Origin: Alphaproteobacteria bacterium | GTDB taxonomy: Bacteria > Pseudomonadota > Alphaproteobacteria > Reyranellales > Reyranellaceae | Length of the DNA stretch: 64,000 nt | Assembly (NCBI GenBank): GCA_019635875.1 | Contig: JAHBYP010000002.1 | Coordinates: forward strand, 682,001 to 746,000 | Direction: 5' to 3' | In this document: positions 3,313 through 30,127 of the stretch, in pieces | Layout of the letters: each line of letters starts with the position of its first letter | How positions within the stretch are numbered: position 1 is the stretch's first letter | Position numbers and translations under genes: made by a program | The notes under the pieces: generated by a model | What the model saw: only the letters and a program-made list of their open reading frames with translations | Databases searched by the model: none | What the model was told of the DNA's origin: nothing

Positions 3313-3378
3313 TGTCATCCCGAGCGCAGCGAGGGATCCTTCGCTGCCGCAAGATCCCTCGCTGGGCTCGGGATGACA
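3313..3378. repeat. Palindromic intergenic repeat, family A, copy 1
   Basis: Inverted repeat with 26-bp arms (3313-3338 and 3353-3378) around a short spacer; the arms begin TGTCATCCCGAGCGCAGCGA and differ at only a few positions. It lies between glnK and amtB inside a presumed operon, so transcripts of the pair must pass through a strong hairpin. Related copies are at 20015, 22654 and 30063, and a half copy is at 35271. Confidence 0.85.
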
Positions 3379-16102: not shown

Positions 16103-17092
16103 ATGTCCGATCCGCTGCTCGTCTCGCCGGTGCCCGGCATCGCGCTCAAGCGCGCCGAGGCCAACAAGATCCGGATGCGCTACGCCGAGGCCGGCACCGG
16201 CCCGATGGTCCTGCTGTGCCATGGCTGGCCCGAGAGCTGGTACTCCTGGCGCCATCAGATCCTGGCGCTGGCCAAGGCCGGCTACCGCGTGGTGGCCCCT
16301 GATATGCGCGGCTACGGCGGCACCGAGGCGCCGGAAGCCATCGAGCACTACACGCTGTTCCACATGGTCGGCGACATGGTCCAGCTGCTCAAGGCGCTGG
16401 GCGAGGAGAAAGCCGTCGTCATCGGCCATGACTGGGGCGCGCCGGTGGCCTGGCACTGCGCCCTGCTGCGGCCCGACCTGTTCCGCGGCGTGGTCGGCAT
16501 GAGCGTGCCGTGGTCGCCGCCCAGCCACCACAACTTCCTGAGCTCGCTGCTCAAGCGCGGCATCAAGACGTTCTACATCCAGTACTTCCAGAAGCCCGGC
16601 GTGGCCGAGGCCGAGCTGCAGAAGAACGCGCGCAACAGCCTGCGCCGCATCTACTACACCGCCGGCGGCGAGATGCAGGAACCGGGCAAGGGCTTCGCCA
16701 TCCTGCCGCCGGGCGGCGGGCTGCTCGACAACACGGTCGATCCGCAGACCCTGCCGCCATGGCTGAGCGAGGCGGACCTCGACTACTACACCGCCGAGTT
16801 CACCCGCGCCGGCTTCCGCGGCGGGCTGAACTGGTATCGCAACCTGACGCGCACCTGGCTGCTCGCCGGCCCGTGGCGCGGCCAGCCGATCACCATCCCG
16901 GCGCTGTTCATCGCCGGCAGCCGCGACGGCGTGCTGCGCTTCCCCGCCGCCCAGGCGCAGATGGACGCCTTCCCGCAGACGCTGCCCAAGCTGCGCGGCA
17001 AGCACATCCTCGACGGCGCCGGCCACTGGGTGCAGCAGGAGCGCGCCGAGGCGGTCAACGGGCTGCTGGTGGAGTTCCTCAAGGGCCTGTAG
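16103..17092 (+). CDS. Alpha/beta hydrolase, epoxide hydrolase type
   Basis: 329-aa cytoplasmic hydrolase. Oxyanion motif HGWPESWYSWR (residues 40-50), nucleophile D110 in GHDWGAPVAW, an acidic residue in IAGSRDGVLRF and the catalytic His in LDGAGHWVQQE. An Asp nucleophile with HGWP is characteristic of epoxide hydrolases and of haloalkane/fluoroacetate dehalogenases. Cap-domain tyrosines (IYYTAGGE, LDYYTAEFTRAG) favour epoxide hydrolase. It starts 27 bp after the YeeE stop and may be co-transcribed with it. Confidence 0.88.
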   Translation: MSDPLLVSPVPGIALKRAEANKIRMRYAEAGTGPMVLLCHGWPESWYSWRHQILALAKAGYRVVAPDMRGYGGTEAPEAIEHYTLFHMVGDMVQLLKALGEEKAVVIGHDWGAPVAWHCALLRPDLFRGVVGMSVPWSPPSHHNFLSSLLKRGIKTFYIQYFQKPGVAEAELQKNARNSLRRIYYTAGGEMQEPGKGFAILPPGGGLLDNTVDPQTLPPWLSEADLDYYTAEFTRAGFRGGLNWYRNLTRTWLLAGPWRGQPITIPALFIAGSRDGVLRFPAAQAQMDAFPQTLPKLRGKHILDGAGHWVQQERAEAVNGLLVEFLKGL

Positions 17093-17173: not shown

Positions 17174-19834
17174 ATGCCGTCATTCGATCGCGCACTGGCC
17201 GGGCTCGTTCGTCGTGCGCTGGCGATCGTGTCGCTGGCCCTCGTCGCGGCGTGCAGCGACTACGACGTGACGACGGCGGATCGCGTGCTGAGCCTGCGCG
17301 ATCGCGACCTGACTGCCGCCGGCCCGTTGCGCGCGGTGCTCCGTTCCACCATCGACGAGAGGATCGCGGCGCTGAGCCTGCCGCTGGCCGCGCCGGGCGA
17401 TCATCGGCTGTGCGGCGGCGAGCTCGGCAACAGCCGCCTGCGCCGCGGCAATCGCGAGCCGATCCGCAGCTCGGCGGAGGCCTTCACCGACAGCCGCTTC
17501 TTCCTGACCTTCGCCGGCACGCCCGGCGGCACCTTGGAGCGCCAGCTCTTCCAGGCCTCGGCGCGCCACGATTTCTGCTACGGCCACGGCGCCGGCACGT
17601 CGGGCCGCACGCGCCAGGACTGCGACCTCGACATGTTCGCCGACATCAACCGGCTGTGCCGGGCCAGCGCCGAGGCCACGCGCGGCGCTGTCAACGTCAC
17701 GGACGACGACAATCACTACGACGTCTCGATCCGGTCCTGCCGCTCGCGCGGCTTCTGGATGAAGGCGGCGGTCGACGTGTTCGGCGACACCTTCTACGGC
17801 GACAATTTCCTCAATCACTGCGAGAGCGACGCCGGCGCCCAGCCGCCGCGCGACCTGGTGATCGCCGGCCGCTTCGTCTCGGCCGGCCAGCAATTGCTCG
17901 AGGTGCGCGCGCTCACCGATCTCGCCCGGCTCGAGCTGGTGATCCACGAGCGCGACGGCGCGGGCGGCTGGCGGGCAGCGCCGCCGATGACGCTCGACCT
18001 CTCGACGATCGCCGTGGTCGAAGGCGAGACCGGCGATCCGCTGGCCTATGACGAGAGCCGCTTCAACCCGCGCTACATCGAGCGCGCGCGGGCCTGCGCC
18101 GACAATCTCGGCCGGCCCTACCGGGTCACCGATCTGCTGCGCTCGGTCCACTTCCTGTCGTACGCGCCTGTCGTCGCCGACATCGACGGCTCGGGCCGCG
18201 ACTGGCTGGTGCTGGTCGCCGTCGACGTTCGCCGCCCGCCCGGCGCGACGACCGACGATCCGTGCGGCTGGGGTCCGATCTTCCTGCCGATCGGCTTCGA
18301 TCGCGACGCCGGCGGGACGATCGTGCCGCGCGCCACCATCGCCCTGCGGCCGGCCGGCCCGAACACGCGGCCGGGCGGCATCAAGTACCGCTTCGGCAGC
18401 AACATCGACCGCTTCGAGCATCGCCTGCACTCGGCGCACGGCCTGCTGCCGGTCGACCGCACGGCGGCCGGAATCTGCGCCGCCGGGGCGCAGATCGTGG
18501 CGCCGTTCATCGGCACCGACAGCTACAACTTCCAGCAGATCCAGGTCCGCGTGTACGAGTTCTGCGTCGAGGGCCGGCGCATCGTGCGCATGCGCTCGCA
18601 CGACTGGAAGGCGGCCGACGAGCCCGAGGCGGCCAAGCGGTTCTGGGGGACGCCCGACGGCGGTGATTTCGCGCACGAGCTCTACAAGCGCTTCCAGCAT
18701 CCGCCGCGCATGTTGAGCGTCGGCGCCGGGCAGCCGGCGCTGCAGTTCTACTTCCGCAGCAAGTGCGACGGGCCCCGCGGCTATTGCTCGCATCGGCCGG
18801 ACAGCGACCTGTTCGATCTCGACAACATGCTGGTCCAGCGCTTGCTGCCGGCGCGTCGCGACAGGCGCCGCGCCGAGCGCCTGGCACCGGACATCCGCAC
18901 GACGCTCGACTGGCACTTGTTCGAGGGCTGGCCGGTGCACCACCAGGCCTGCCTCGATTCGCGAACCAGGGTCACCGGCCAGGCGCACAAGTTCGGCTGC
19001 CATCGCGGCTGGGATCGCACCGGCTATCCGGCCGCGATCGTCGCCGATGGCGCACCGCGCCGGCCGCGCGACACGACCCTGCTGGCAATCCACCTGACCA
19101 ATTGCCGGCTGGGCGAGGCGCACATGGACAGCCGCGGCCTGTGCCGCGAAAGGGTCCCGGCAGCGCCGCAGGCCGACACCGCGCCGGGCGATGGCCATCA
19201 CGAGCGCCTGCGGCTGTCGGTGATCGACACGACGCTCGACTCGAGCCCCGGCCCGCGCCTGTTCGACATCGACTCCCCGCGCCTGCGCAGCGGCGAGGAG
19301 CACGCCGCGCCGCGCCTGGCGGGCAGCTGGCGCATCCATCCGCCGATCGCGATGTCGTTCGGCCGGGACGGCGCCGGGCTGGTCATGCTGCGGCCCAGCG
19401 ATCCCCTCGACCTGCGCGACCACTCGCCGCTGTCGATCGAGCCCGGCCGGCAGTTCCAGCGCGACTCGGCCACGGCGCAGGCGAGGCCGCGCGTGCTGCG
19501 CCTGCTGGTGATCGCCAATCCCCGGCCGGCATCCGACAGCACGCCATGGACGGCGCGCGAATATGTCTGCGCGCTGCCGCCGGAACTGGCCGGCCGGCGC
19601 TGGCCGCTCAGGGCCGCGCCGGTGCTGCGCGCCGAGCGGGACGCCGGCGCGGCGAGTCTTGCGATCGTGGCCCGGCCGCTCCTGGCCGGCGGCGGGCCGG
19701 CCATCGTGGTCAACGAGATCGACTTCGCGGGGGCGATCCCGACCCGCAGCGCGCTCGATGGCTGGACCGGCCCCTGCGCGGCGGCCGCGGAGCAGGACTG
19801 GGAGGTCAGGCCGGTGCTGGGCAATGCCCGCTGA
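17174..19834 (+). CDS. Large lipoprotein with phospholipase A2-like active site
   Basis: 886 aa. A signal peptide with lipobox LVAAC (Cys27) predicts surface or periplasmic anchoring. Residues 131-136 read RHDFCY, followed by GHGAGT, then DCDLDMFADINRLC at 149-162. The His-Asp pair (H132/D133) and the later Cys-Asp are the catalytic pattern of secreted phospholipases A2. The remaining 700 residues are unassigned; APVVADIDGSGRDWLVLVAV resembles an FG-GAP-type repeat, and many cysteines suggest disulfides. ATG 17174 is chosen because it leads directly into the signal peptide. The motif is clear, but lipase activity is inference. Confidence 0.75.
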   Translation: MPSFDRALAGLVRRALAIVSLALVAACSDYDVTTADRVLSLRDRDLTAAGPLRAVLRSTIDERIAALSLPLAAPGDHRLCGGELGNSRLRRGNREPIRSSAEAFTDSRFFLTFAGTPGGTLERQLFQASARHDFCYGHGAGTSGRTRQDCDLDMFADINRLCRASAEATRGAVNVTDDDNHYDVSIRSCRSRGFWMKAAVDVFGDTFYGDNFLNHCESDAGAQPPRDLVIAGRFVSAGQQLLEVRALTDLARLELVIHERDGAGGWRAAPPMTLDLSTIAVVEGETGDPLAYDESRFNPRYIERARACADNLGRPYRVTDLLRSVHFLSYAPVVADIDGSGRDWLVLVAVDVRRPPGATTDDPCGWGPIFLPIGFDRDAGGTIVPRATIALRPAGPNTRPGGIKYRFGSNIDRFEHRLHSAHGLLPVDRTAAGICAAGAQIVAPFIGTDSYNFQQIQVRVYEFCVEGRRIVRMRSHDWKAADEPEAAKRFWGTPDGGDFAHELYKRFQHPPRMLSVGAGQPALQFYFRSKCDGPRGYCSHRPDSDLFDLDNMLVQRLLPARRDRRRAERLAPDIRTTLDWHLFEGWPVHHQACLDSRTRVTGQAHKFGCHRGWDRTGYPAAIVADGAPRRPRDTTLLAIHLTNCRLGEAHMDSRGLCRERVPAAPQADTAPGDGHHERLRLSVIDTTLDSSPGPRLFDIDSPRLRSGEEHAAPRLAGSWRIHPPIAMSFGRDGAGLVMLRPSDPLDLRDHSPLSIEPGRQFQRDSATAQARPRVLRLLVIANPRPASDSTPWTAREYVCALPPELAGRRWPLRAAPVLRAERDAGAASLAIVARPLLAGGGPAIVVNEIDFAGAIPTRSALDGWTGPCAAAAEQDWEVRPVLGNAR

Positions 19835-19876
19835 TTGTGCCAAGCTCGCCGCCTCGGGCTTCCAGCGGAGATGCAC

Positions 19877-19993
19877 ATGTTGCGCAACGCGCTGATTCTC
19901 GTCCTCACCGTCCTGGCGCTCGGCGCCGCCCTGCCGGCATCGGCGGGCGAATGCTCCAATCCGCCGCCGCCGGTCTCGAAGCCCAACGCCTGA
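19877..19993 (+). CDS. Tiny secreted peptide, hypothetical
   Basis: 38-aa open frame. MLRNALILVLTVLALGAALP then ASAGECSNPPPPVSKPNA: nearly all signal peptide with an ASA cleavage site, leaving a mature peptide of about 15 residues with one Cys and a proline run. GGAG lies 8 bp before the ATG at 19877 (another ATG is at 19871). It lies 42 bp after the PLA2-like gene on the same strand. It could be a real small secreted protein or a leader. No homologue is known to me. Confidence 0.5.
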   Translation: MLRNALILVLTVLALGAALPASAGECSNPPPPVSKPNA

Positions 19994-20014
19994 GGCGCGG
20001 GCGGGTCGATCGTC

Positions 20015-20080
20015 TGACATCCCGAGCGCAGCGAGGGATCCAGGCGGCTTTCCTGGATCCCTCGCTGCGCTCGGGATGAC
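20015..20080. repeat. Palindromic intergenic repeat, family A, copy 2
   Basis: Inverted repeat whose arms contain CCCGAGCGCAGCGAGGGATC and its reverse complement, around a short spacer (GCGGCTTT). It lies between the convergent tiny secreted gene and msrB, where it could act as a bidirectional mRNA end. Confidence 0.85.
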
Positions 20081-22641: not shown

Positions 22642-23164
22642 TTCGCGTCAGGCCGTCATCCGATCGGAGCGTGGGATCCAGCCCGGGCCCTGGATCCCTC
22701 GCTGCGCTCGGGATGACAGTTGGTCCTGATCGATCGGGCTCCGCTTCGGGCGGCGCGTGAGTCGGCGCTGTCTCGGCATTGCTATGGATTTCCATGGTCC
22801 GCGCAGGCGCCTCGCCGGCACAGGGCATGTCGCCATGGGCCGAGGGGTAGCGGCGCCTGGCGTTCTTGCCGACACGCTGAAGCTGACCCCAGTCGACGAC
22901 GGCGACGTACTCCACGCCGTCGACCTCGTAGATCCGCACCAGCCCCTGCGTCGCCAGCTCGTCGATCATGGTCCGCACGGCGTCGTTGTCGATCGCGTCG
23001 CCGGGAAACACCTGCATGCGGATGGTGCGGGGCCGAAGCGGCTGCACGCCGAAATCGTCGGCGAAGTTCCACAGGCCGATGAACAGAAGTCGGGTCATCG
23101 GCGCACAGTCGATGACGGCCTCCCAGGTCCAGAAATCAGAGGGGATCTTGCGGTCGCGGGCCAT
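22628..23164 (-). CDS. Hypothetical protein with phage-replication-like winged helix
   Basis: 178 aa. The N-terminal half (KIPSDFWTWEAVIDCAPMTR, FIGLWNFADDFGVQPLRPRT, then RIYEVDGVEYVAVVDWGQLQ) resembles the DnaD/replication-initiator-like proteins found in phages and genomic islands. The last about 30 residues (VIPSAARDPGPGLDPTLRSD) are simply translated from the family A repeat at 22654-22718, so the C-terminus appears to have been replaced by the repeat. It overlaps the convergent TPR gene by 14 bp. The start at 23164 is the conserved MARDRKIPSDFW; a longer frame is possible. It is a likely remnant of a mobile element; no other phage gene is nearby. Confidence 0.6.
   Translation of the reverse strand: MARDRKIPSDFWTWEAVIDCAPMTRLLFIGLWNFADDFGVQPLRPRTIRMQVFPGDAIDNDAVRTMIDELATQGLVRIYEVDGVEYVAVVDWGQLQRVGKNARRRYPSAHGDMPCAGEAPARTMEIHSNAETAPTHAPPEAEPDRSGPTVIPSAARDPGPGLDPTLRSDDGLTRTTAP
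22654..22718. repeat. Palindromic repeat, family A, copy 3 (one decayed arm)
   Basis: The right arm GGATCCCTCGCTGCGCTCGG is intact; the left arm (GTCATCCGATCGGAGCGTGG) has diverged. It lies just after the TPR stop and inside the 3' end of the convergent hypothetical gene, whose last codons it supplies. Confidence 0.8.
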
Positions 23165-24822: not shown

Positions 24823-25854
24823 TCAGGCGATCGATTGCGGGTGGGCACGGACCGGTGCCTCGAACGGCGTCCAGGCGACCGCGGTGATCTCCGGAAAGGA
24901 CCGCCACTCCCTGGACCAGCTGGCCCCGCCGTCGACCGAGCGGAACAGGTCGCCGTACTTCGTGCCGGCAAACAGCAGTCCCGGATCGTCGTCATGCGCG
25001 CCGAACGTCCAGAAGGTGGAGTTGGGTTGCGCGTGCAGGAGCGCCGGCGTCCAGCTGACGCCGCGATCCAGCGAGCGATAAAGCCGGCTGCGGGTTCCCG
25101 GCGTGCCATCGCCGACCGCCAGAACCACGGCGTCGGTGGTCGGCACGTGCTGGACGGCGCGCGTGTAGTACATGCCGTCGAAGCGGCTCTTCGATGGAAC
25201 GCCGCTCCATGTCACGCCGCCGTCGGTGCTGGTGAAGACCGAGTTGACCGTCAGCACGAAGGCCGTCCGCGGCCGACCCTTGGCGGGCGGCAGCACGGCG
25301 ATGTGGTGAATGTCGGAATTGTTGATCGCGCCATCCCGGTCGATCCGCGTCCAGGTGACGCCGCGATCGAGGCTGCGCCACGCGCCGCCCTCCTCGACGC
25401 CGAACCAGACCTGGGCGCTGTCCACGGGATCGACGCAGATCGTGAGAATGCGCGGTCGATTGACGCCGTTGCAGAACTCCGGGATGTCCGGCGACAGACG
25501 CTCCCAGCTATTGCCGCCATCGACCGAACGGAACATCGCCGCACGCTGTGGTGCGCCGGTTCCTGCGTAGATGAAGGACGGGTCGACCGGGTCGATCGCA
25601 ATCGACCACACCGCCATGCCGTTCATCGGCGAGTCGATCCGCGAGAAGTGCGCGCCGCCATCCATGCTCACGCACAACCCGGCATCCGCACCGGCGAGAA
25701 TCCGCGCCGGGTCGGCGGGGTGAACCGCCAGGCTGCGCACGACGCCGTCAAACTCGATGGCCTCCTTCAGCCCAAGCCGGTGCCACGTCGCGCCGTCATC
25801 GACGCTGCGCAGGATTCCCTGGCTGGCCGTCCCGACCAGAATTGTGCCCCGCAT
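24823..25854 (-). CDS. Asp-box (BNR/sortilin-like) beta-propeller protein
   Basis: 343 aa. At least seven Asp-box turns of the S-x-D-x-G-x-T-W type are visible: SVDDGATW, SMDGGAHF, SVDGGNSW, SLDRGVTW, STDGGVTW, SLDRGVSW and SVDGGASW, spaced 40-60 residues apart. This predicts a sialidase/VPS10-like beta-propeller. There is no signal peptide and no sialidase Arg triad, so hydrolysis of sialic acid is unlikely. ATG 25854 follows GGGAGAA. It is first gene of the leftward operon, facing the TctC gene across the operator at 25905. Confidence 0.8.
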   Translation of the reverse strand: MRGTILVGTASQGILRSVDDGATWHRLGLKEAIEFDGVVRSLAVHPADPARILAGADAGLCVSMDGGAHFSRIDSPMNGMAVWSIAIDPVDPSFIYAGTGAPQRAAMFRSVDGGNSWERLSPDIPEFCNGVNRPRILTICVDPVDSAQVWFGVEEGGAWRSLDRGVTWTRIDRDGAINNSDIHHIAVLPPAKGRPRTAFVLTVNSVFTSTDGGVTWSGVPSKSRFDGMYYTRAVQHVPTTDAVVLAVGDGTPGTRSRLYRSLDRGVSWTPALLHAQPNSTFWTFGAHDDDPGLLFAGTKYGDLFRSVDGGASWSREWRSFPEITAVAWTPFEAPVRAHPQSIA

Positions 25855-30062: not shown

Positions 30063-30127
30063 TGTCATCCCGAGCGCAGCGAGGGATCCAGGGCAGACCT
30101 GGATTCCTCGCTGCGCTCGGAATGACA
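30063..30127. repeat. Palindromic intergenic repeat, family A, copy 4
   Basis: Arms of about 30 bp (30063-30092 and 30098-30127) starting TGTCATCCCGAGCGCAGCGA, with two mismatches between them. It lies between the convergent tctC copy 2 and folD genes. Confidence 0.85.

What the first reader, a model, noticed from the sequence alone, without database searches (positions are those of the whole stretch)
17174..19834. Very large lipoprotein with a phospholipase A2 active-site motif
RHDFCYGHG and the DCDLDMF segment reproduce the His-Asp and Cys-Asp pattern of secreted PLA2 enzymes, but the protein is 886 aa and lipid-anchored, while known bacterial PLA2s are short secreted proteins. The 700-residue remainder is unassigned. 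This may be an undescribed architecture for envelope lipid attack or remodelling.
Basis: partly seen in the sequence, partly recalled or inferred. Interest (0 to 1): 0.6.

Follow-up and report, generated by a model that had tools for sequence, protein, structure and literature searches.

The report
Membrane-tethered PLA2 with propeller-like domain
This gene encodes a large lipoprotein whose first part is a phospholipase A2-type enzyme domain and whose long second part is probably a β-propeller; it is a divergent member of an unnamed, unannotated family of membrane-anchored enzymes scattered through soil and plant-associated Proteobacteria, and probably trims lipids in the bacterium's own envelope.

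Summary
The ORF at 17174-19834 encodes 886 aa with a lipobox (VAAC27), HDFCY at 132-136 and CD at 150-151. The PLA2 call is supported by homology, not only by motif. A same-genus relative (38-41% identity) and 41 more distant loci (Bradyrhizobium, Sinorhizobium, Methylobacterium, Hydrogenophaga, Pseudomonas and others) share the domain. A profile of it retrieves the two solved group XIV PLA2s first from the whole PDB (1faz E=5e-6; 4aup E=0.75), with His64/Asp65/Asp85 aligned to H132/D133/D151. Full-length members are 670-890 aa and membrane-tethered, by lipid or TM helix. In a confident model of a Hydrogenophaga member (pLDDT 79) the HD pair lies in a helix followed by the CD helix, and the rest is a β-propeller; the window protein's own model is poor (pLDDT 50) with the same layout. 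The domain is mixed: group XIV core, an extra HDxCY...CD cysteine pair, no group XIV Ca-loop Asp. No Pfam or NCBIfam model covers it above cut-off; Sinorhizobium copies are 'hypothetical protein'. No conserved neighbour or immunity gene was found. Most likely a periplasmic, membrane-tethered PLA2 for own-envelope lipid remodelling; activity is untested. New variant of a known kind.

The parts
17174..19834 (+). ORF of 886 aa: lipoprotein with N-terminal PLA2 domain and C-terminal beta-rich domain
   Evidence: full-length relative L002 in the same genus
17174..17251 (+). lipoprotein signal peptide (residues 1-26)
   Evidence: sequence; lipobox scan; helix 5-28 in model
17243..17254 (+). lipobox V24-A-A-C27 (lipidated Cys 27, Ser at +2)
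   Evidence: the relatives L002, L016, L017, L019 and L023 have lipoboxes too
17408..17473 (+). putative Ca-binding loop region: LCGGELGNSR (79-88) to S99-S100; GG invariant in the family; S99 replaces the family Cys
   Evidence: alignment A8
17408..17818 (+). PLA2 domain (residues about 79-215), group XIV-related
   Evidence: profile matches to 1faz/4aup; hhalign to the wider family P=7e-12
17567..17572 (+). catalytic His132 and metal-binding Asp133 (align with His64/Asp65 of S. violaceoruber PLA2)
   Evidence: invariant in 24/24; alignments
17624..17626 (+). Asp151, dyad partner (aligns with Asp85 of S. violaceoruber PLA2)
   Evidence: invariant in 24/24
17846..19831 (+). C-terminal beta-rich domain (residues 225-886), probable beta-propeller
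   Evidence: strands; VIA-align rows dominated by beta-propellers, best Z 9.2 on a low-confidence model; confident propeller in relative L019
18167..18220 (+). PVVADIDGSGRDWLVLVA: FG-GAP/VCBS-like blade signature (residues 332-349)
   Evidence: sequence; the colinear position in the family reads PPMVVRDEGKGEDWFVWW; no Pfam hit for this fragment

Best explanation
A Sec-exported lipoprotein, anchored by lipidated Cys27 with its body in the periplasm (or on the outer membrane's periplasmic face), carries a group XIV-related PLA2 domain (about residues 79-215) followed by a beta-propeller (about 225-886). His132, with Asp151 as dyad partner, activates a water that cleaves the sn-2 ester of a membrane glycerophospholipid; Asp133 and a glycine-rich loop hold Ca2+. 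Tethering keeps the enzyme at the bilayer, and the propeller restricts, regulates or recruits it. The cell uses it to turn over or remodel phospholipids of its own envelope. Shown here: ORF, lipobox, homology to PLA2, conservation of the three catalytic residues, conserved tethering. Inferred: activity, Ca2+ use, the role of the propeller, own-envelope substrate.
For: A three-row profile of the PLA2 region gives 1faz (S. violaceoruber PLA2) as best PDB match at E=4e-6 and 4aup (truffle PLA2) among the next. A 24-row profile gives 1faz 5e-6, then 4aup 0.75. The window/same-genus pair alone gives 1faz at 0.003 as best hit. H132, D133, C135, Y136, C150, D151 and C162 are invariant in 24/24. HD and CD lie on successive helices (100-123, 127-145) in the confident model of L019 (pLDDT 79, pTM 0.85). 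Tethering is conserved while the anchor type varies: 6 lipoproteins and 17 TM-anchored proteins, 3 switches on the tree although one is not excluded. The C-terminal part of L019 matches beta-propellers (best Z 10.8, 309 residues, rmsd 5.3). No conserved neighbours or immunity candidates across genera. The genome has no OMPLA (PF02253). Literature: TtaP, another distant group XIV relative with the same dyad and no disulfides, was shown to be an active PLA2 (PMC11525133).
Against: The group XIV side-chain Ca2+ ligand (Asp of DxC[ST]) is missing in all 24 rows, and the window pair also lacks the Cys pair that ties the loop (S99, S129), so activity could be altered or lost. The window protein's own model is poor (pLDDT 49.8). 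Homology of its C-terminal part to the family propeller is weak by sequence (hhalign P=0.043, 45 columns). No partner gene or regulation supports the physiological role.
Confidence: 0.55

Rival explanations
1. It has a PLA2 fold but not PLA2 activity: the Ca2+ loop has degenerated, and the tethered domain works as a binding or regulatory module, or hydrolyses another acyl ester.
For: The DxC[ST] Asp is absent in all 24 rows, and both loop cysteines are lost in the Reyranellaceae pair. A long branch (8.2) separates that pair from the rest.
Against: H132, D133, D151 and Y136 are strictly kept in 24/24 over very large divergence, which is unusual for a dead enzyme. Canonical sPLA2s bind Ca2+ with loop backbone carbonyls plus the HD Asp (established knowledge), and a glycine-rich loop is conserved here. 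TtaP lacks the disulfides and is active (PMC11525133).
Confidence: 0.25
2. It is a toxin or effector acting on other cells (polymorphic Tox-PLA2-like).
For: Group XIV-type PLA2 domains occur as toxin domains of polymorphic toxins (PMC3482391). Distribution is patchy (8 of 397 genomes of the order of G432, one marginal).
Against: The PLA2 domain is N-terminal, next to the membrane anchor, and not a C-terminal cassette. No toxin-trafficking domains were found in Pfam scans. There is no conserved neighbour or immunity gene. The TM-anchored members cannot be released without cleavage.
Confidence: 0.12
3. The motif is coincidental and the protein is not a PLA2 relative.
For: No Pfam or NCBIfam match of the single sequence; low identity to any solved PLA2.
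Confidence: 0.03

Closest known systems
Group XIV secreted PLA2 (S. violaceoruber PLA2, PDB 1faz/1lwb; truffle TbSP1, 4aup; Pfam PF09056)
   Same: Best profile match in the PDB. H64/D65/D85 align with H132/D133/D151; in relatives the Cys45-Cys61 positions are also present; C162/C189 lie where the group XIV enzyme has its C-terminal Cys pair (alignment).
   Different: 886 aa instead of about 120; tethered instead of secreted; Ca-loop Asp absent; extra Cys pair HDxCY...CD; window protein lacks the loop Cys pair; below the PF09056 cut-off.
Canonical secreted PLA2 (groups I/II; also PLA2G12, PF06951)
   Same: C-x-x-H-D-x-C-Y ... C-D spacing in the family; the C135/C150 pair sits where canonical Cys51-Cys98 sits, next to Asp99 (recalled numbering); glycine-rich loop before the helix; weak PF06951 hits, best E=0.075.
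   Different: No Pfam sPLA2 match for the window protein; no solved canonical sPLA2 retrieved by the profiles; most canonical disulfides absent.
TtaP / DUF1353 PLA2 (PMC11525133)
   Same: Another distant group XIV relative in Gram-negative bacteria keeping the His/Asp dyad and the Asp after His, shown active.
   Different: 125 aa, no anchor, no propeller; not tested as a sequence relative here.
Tox-PLA2 of polymorphic toxins (PMC3482391)
   Same: Group XIV-type PLA2 domain inside a long bacterial protein.
   Different: There the domain is a toxin cassette with the DxC[ST] and CxxHxxxYxN motifs; here it is N-terminal, tethered, and lacks the Asp and the Asn.
OMPLA / PldA (PF02253)
   Same: Possible functional analogue: phospholipase A of the Gram-negative envelope.
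   Different: Unrelated beta-barrel serine hydrolase; absent from this genome.

Membership tests
Group XIV secreted PLA2 | His-Asp dyad plus Asp after the His (H64, D85, D65) | tested here: met
   H132, D151, D133 aligned, 24/24 invariant
Group XIV secreted PLA2 | Ca2+ loop DxC[ST] with side-chain Asp | tested here: not met
   position holds L/I/V/M in all 24 rows; motif as given in PMC3482391
Group XIV secreted PLA2 | two conserved disulfides | tested here: inconclusive
   Cys at the four positions in most relatives; in the window protein S99 and S129 replace the first pair, and C162/C189 fit the second. Bond formation not testable.
Group XIV secreted PLA2 | Pfam PF09056 above cut-off | tested here: not met
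   window none; L002 14.7 bits against 29.4; own-genome search none
Group XIV secreted PLA2 | small secreted enzyme (about 120 residues) | tested here: not met
   886 aa with lipobox
PLA2-fold superfamily (works like a PLA2) | His-Asp in a helix followed by a helix with the second Asp | tested here: met
   confident model of relative L019; same layout at low confidence in the window protein; direct structural superposition on a PLA2 was not obtained
PLA2-fold superfamily (works like a PLA2) | sn-2 ester hydrolysis, Ca2+ dependence | not testable with these tools
   needs an assay
Bacterial lipoprotein | type II signal peptide with lipobox | tested here: met
   VAAC27 after a basic n-region and a hydrophobic stretch; lipidation itself not testable
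beta-propeller (FG-GAP/VCBS-like) | fold of the C-terminal domain | tested here: inconclusive
   clear in relative L019; low-confidence in the window protein; FG-GAP models match some relatives at E 0.0008-0.2, below cut-off
Polymorphic toxin (Tox-PLA2) | C-terminal toxin domain, trafficking domain, adjacent immunity gene | tested here: not met
   PLA2 domain N-terminal; no conserved neighbour; neighbours are alpha/beta hydrolase, MsrB, radical SAM aminomutase

The most novel reading that the evidence does not exclude
This is a new PLA2 group: membrane-tethered periplasmic PLA2 with a beta-propeller control domain, whose catalytic domain combines the group XIV core with the canonical HDxCY...CD disulfide and a glycine Ca2+ loop. 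It would link the group XIV and canonical sPLA2s and serve as an OMPLA-independent way to remodel envelope phospholipids in Alphaproteobacteria and others.
Probability: 0.35. Interest if true: 0.65.

Novelty: new variant of a known kind. Interest (0 to 1): 0.45.

Why it matters
Bacterial phospholipid turnover in the envelope is poorly understood outside enterobacteria, which use OMPLA. A scattered but unannotated family of tethered PLA2s in rhizobia and other Proteobacteria would give a concrete enzyme to test. Its mixed motif also bears on how the group XIV and canonical secreted PLA2s are related.

Tried and rejected
Chance motif: rejected (1 of 200,000 shuffles; homology). Antisense ORF 17180-20020 as the real gene: rejected (weaker conservation). 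Single-sequence searches of Pfam, NCBIfam, PHROGs, PADLOC and PDB: no hits. First genome-contig scan with the single sequence found nothing; the four-row profile found 42 loci. Genome neighbourhood: synteny only within single genera. Profile search of the window pair's C-terminal part against the PDB: nothing. Sequence comparison of the two C-terminal domains: weak only. FG-GAP test of the window's DxDGxG fragment: no Pfam hit. Promoter scan: nothing. Literature searches for a PLA2-propeller protein: none in the held library.

Full report
What is there. The ORF 17174-19834 (+) encodes 886 aa in what is most likely a Reyranellaceae genome (G000; the nearest relative, L051/G005, is a Reyranellaceae MAG of the same genus). 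It starts with a lipoprotein signal peptide ending VAAC27, followed by a region with LCGGELGNSR, RSSAEAF, SARHDFCYGHG and RQDCDLDMFADINRLC, then about 660 residues rich in predicted strands. The reading frame is real: 92% GC at third codon positions and conservation with the same-genus relative far above that of the antisense frame. The HDxCY...CD pattern arose once in 200,000 shuffles.

Relatives. One full-length relative exists among the 76 genomes searched in the order (L002, 41% by the search, 38-40% in the alignments). Class-wide searches then found a Zavarzinia protein and a Bradyrhizobium protein. A profile of these four scanned over 84,980 genomes gave 42 loci: many Bradyrhizobium, Sinorhizobium, Mesorhizobium, Methylobacterium, Methylopila, Belnapia, Burkholderiales, Hydrogenophaga, Sulfuritalea, Lamprocystis, Pseudomonas viridiflava. 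The family is patchy: 3 of 385 genomes in the class, 8 of 397 in the order of Bradyrhizobium, one of them marginal. Sinorhizobium plasmid copies are annotated 'hypothetical protein' or not at all. No Pfam or NCBIfam model covers the family above its cut-off.

PLA2 domain. In 24 diverse rows the invariant positions include GG, A-x3-H-D-x-C-Y, G, T, C-D and a later C. Against the whole PDB, the profile's best hits are the group XIV enzymes 1faz (5e-6) and 4aup (0.75); the window pair alone gives 1faz as best hit at 0.003. In these alignments His64, Asp65 and Asp85 of the Streptomyces enzyme meet H132, D133 and D151. The hhalign match between the window pair and the wider family is P=7e-12 for this domain.

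A mixed domain. Three features set it apart. First, the group XIV Ca2+ ligand Asp in DxC[ST] (motif: PMC3482391) is absent in all rows; a glycine-rich GGxGxGL stretch stands in its place in the wider family. Second, the family has an added pair, HDxCY and CD, which in canonical sPLA2 is the Cys51-Cys98 disulfide next to Asp99 (recalled from established numbering, not tested). Third, the loop Cys (CSLP) and the Cys before HD (QAC) are present in the other 22 rows but both are Ser in the two Reyranellaceae proteins (S99, S129), as expected if they form one disulfide that was lost once. TtaP, which also lacks the group XIV disulfides, is an active PLA2 (PMC11525133).

Tethering. Six of 23 members scored have a lipobox and 17 an N-terminal TM helix. 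The tree needs three switches, though one cannot be excluded. The conserved property is therefore tethering with the domain outside the cytoplasm, not the type of anchor. This inference rests on N-terminal charge and signal patterns, not on localisation data.

The large remainder. AlphaFold of the window protein was poor (pLDDT 49.8) but shows helices 117-143 (with H132/D133), 147-171 (with D151) and 186-207, then strands from 228 on; its second-look matches are dominated by beta-propellers, best Z 9.2 at rmsd 4.5 over 280 residues. For a relative with a better alignment (L019, Hydrogenophaga) pLDDT was 79 and pTM 0.85: helices 100-123 with H112/D113, 127-145 with D131, 151-168, then a beta-domain from 200 to 713, matched by propeller proteins, best Z 10.8. 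Foldseek itself gave weak E-values (best 1e-4), so no closer propeller family can be named. FG-GAP-type signatures (DxDGDG) occur near the C-terminus of several relatives, below the Pfam cut-offs, and once in the window protein (332-349). Sequence homology of the window's C-terminal part to the family's is only suggestive (P=0.043, colinear).

Context. Upstream on the same strand is an alpha/beta hydrolase (16103-17092); downstream are a 38-codon secreted peptide ORF and msrB on the other strand. The relatives have different neighbours, with conservation only inside single genera. No OMPLA is found in the genome.

Reading. Most likely this is a membrane-tethered periplasmic PLA2 that acts on the cell's own envelope phospholipids, with a propeller that positions or restrains it. 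PLA2 homology is well supported; activity is likely but not shown; the physiological role is inference. A dead or differently acting PLA2 fold is the main rival because the Ca2+ loop is altered. It should not be filed as a plain group XIV member: a defining loop residue, the Pfam cut-off and the small secreted form were tested and not met.

Noticed in passing
20021-20075 (also 3319-3372, 22692-22712, 30069-30121): Dispersed palindromic repeat CCCGAGCGCAGCGAGGGATCC with an inverted copy about 12 nt away; 455 copies in the 6.2 Mb genome with at most one mismatch, 0 in the reversed control. It creates spurious reading frames (..SRAQRGIQ..LDPSLRSG).
   Followed up: partly
19877-19993 (+): 38-codon ORF just downstream of the PLA2 gene encoding a signal-peptide-like sequence and a short Pro-rich tail (MLRNALILVLTVLALGAALPASAGECSNPPPPVSKPNA).
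   Followed up: no
24823-25854 (-): ORF with repeated Asp-box-like motifs (SVDDGATWHRL, SVDGGNSWERL, SLDRGVTWTRI); looks like a separate BNR-type beta-propeller, unrelated to the finding.
   Followed up: no
whole genome of the window (G000): No OMPLA/PldA (PF02253) gene found in the genome.
   Followed up: partly
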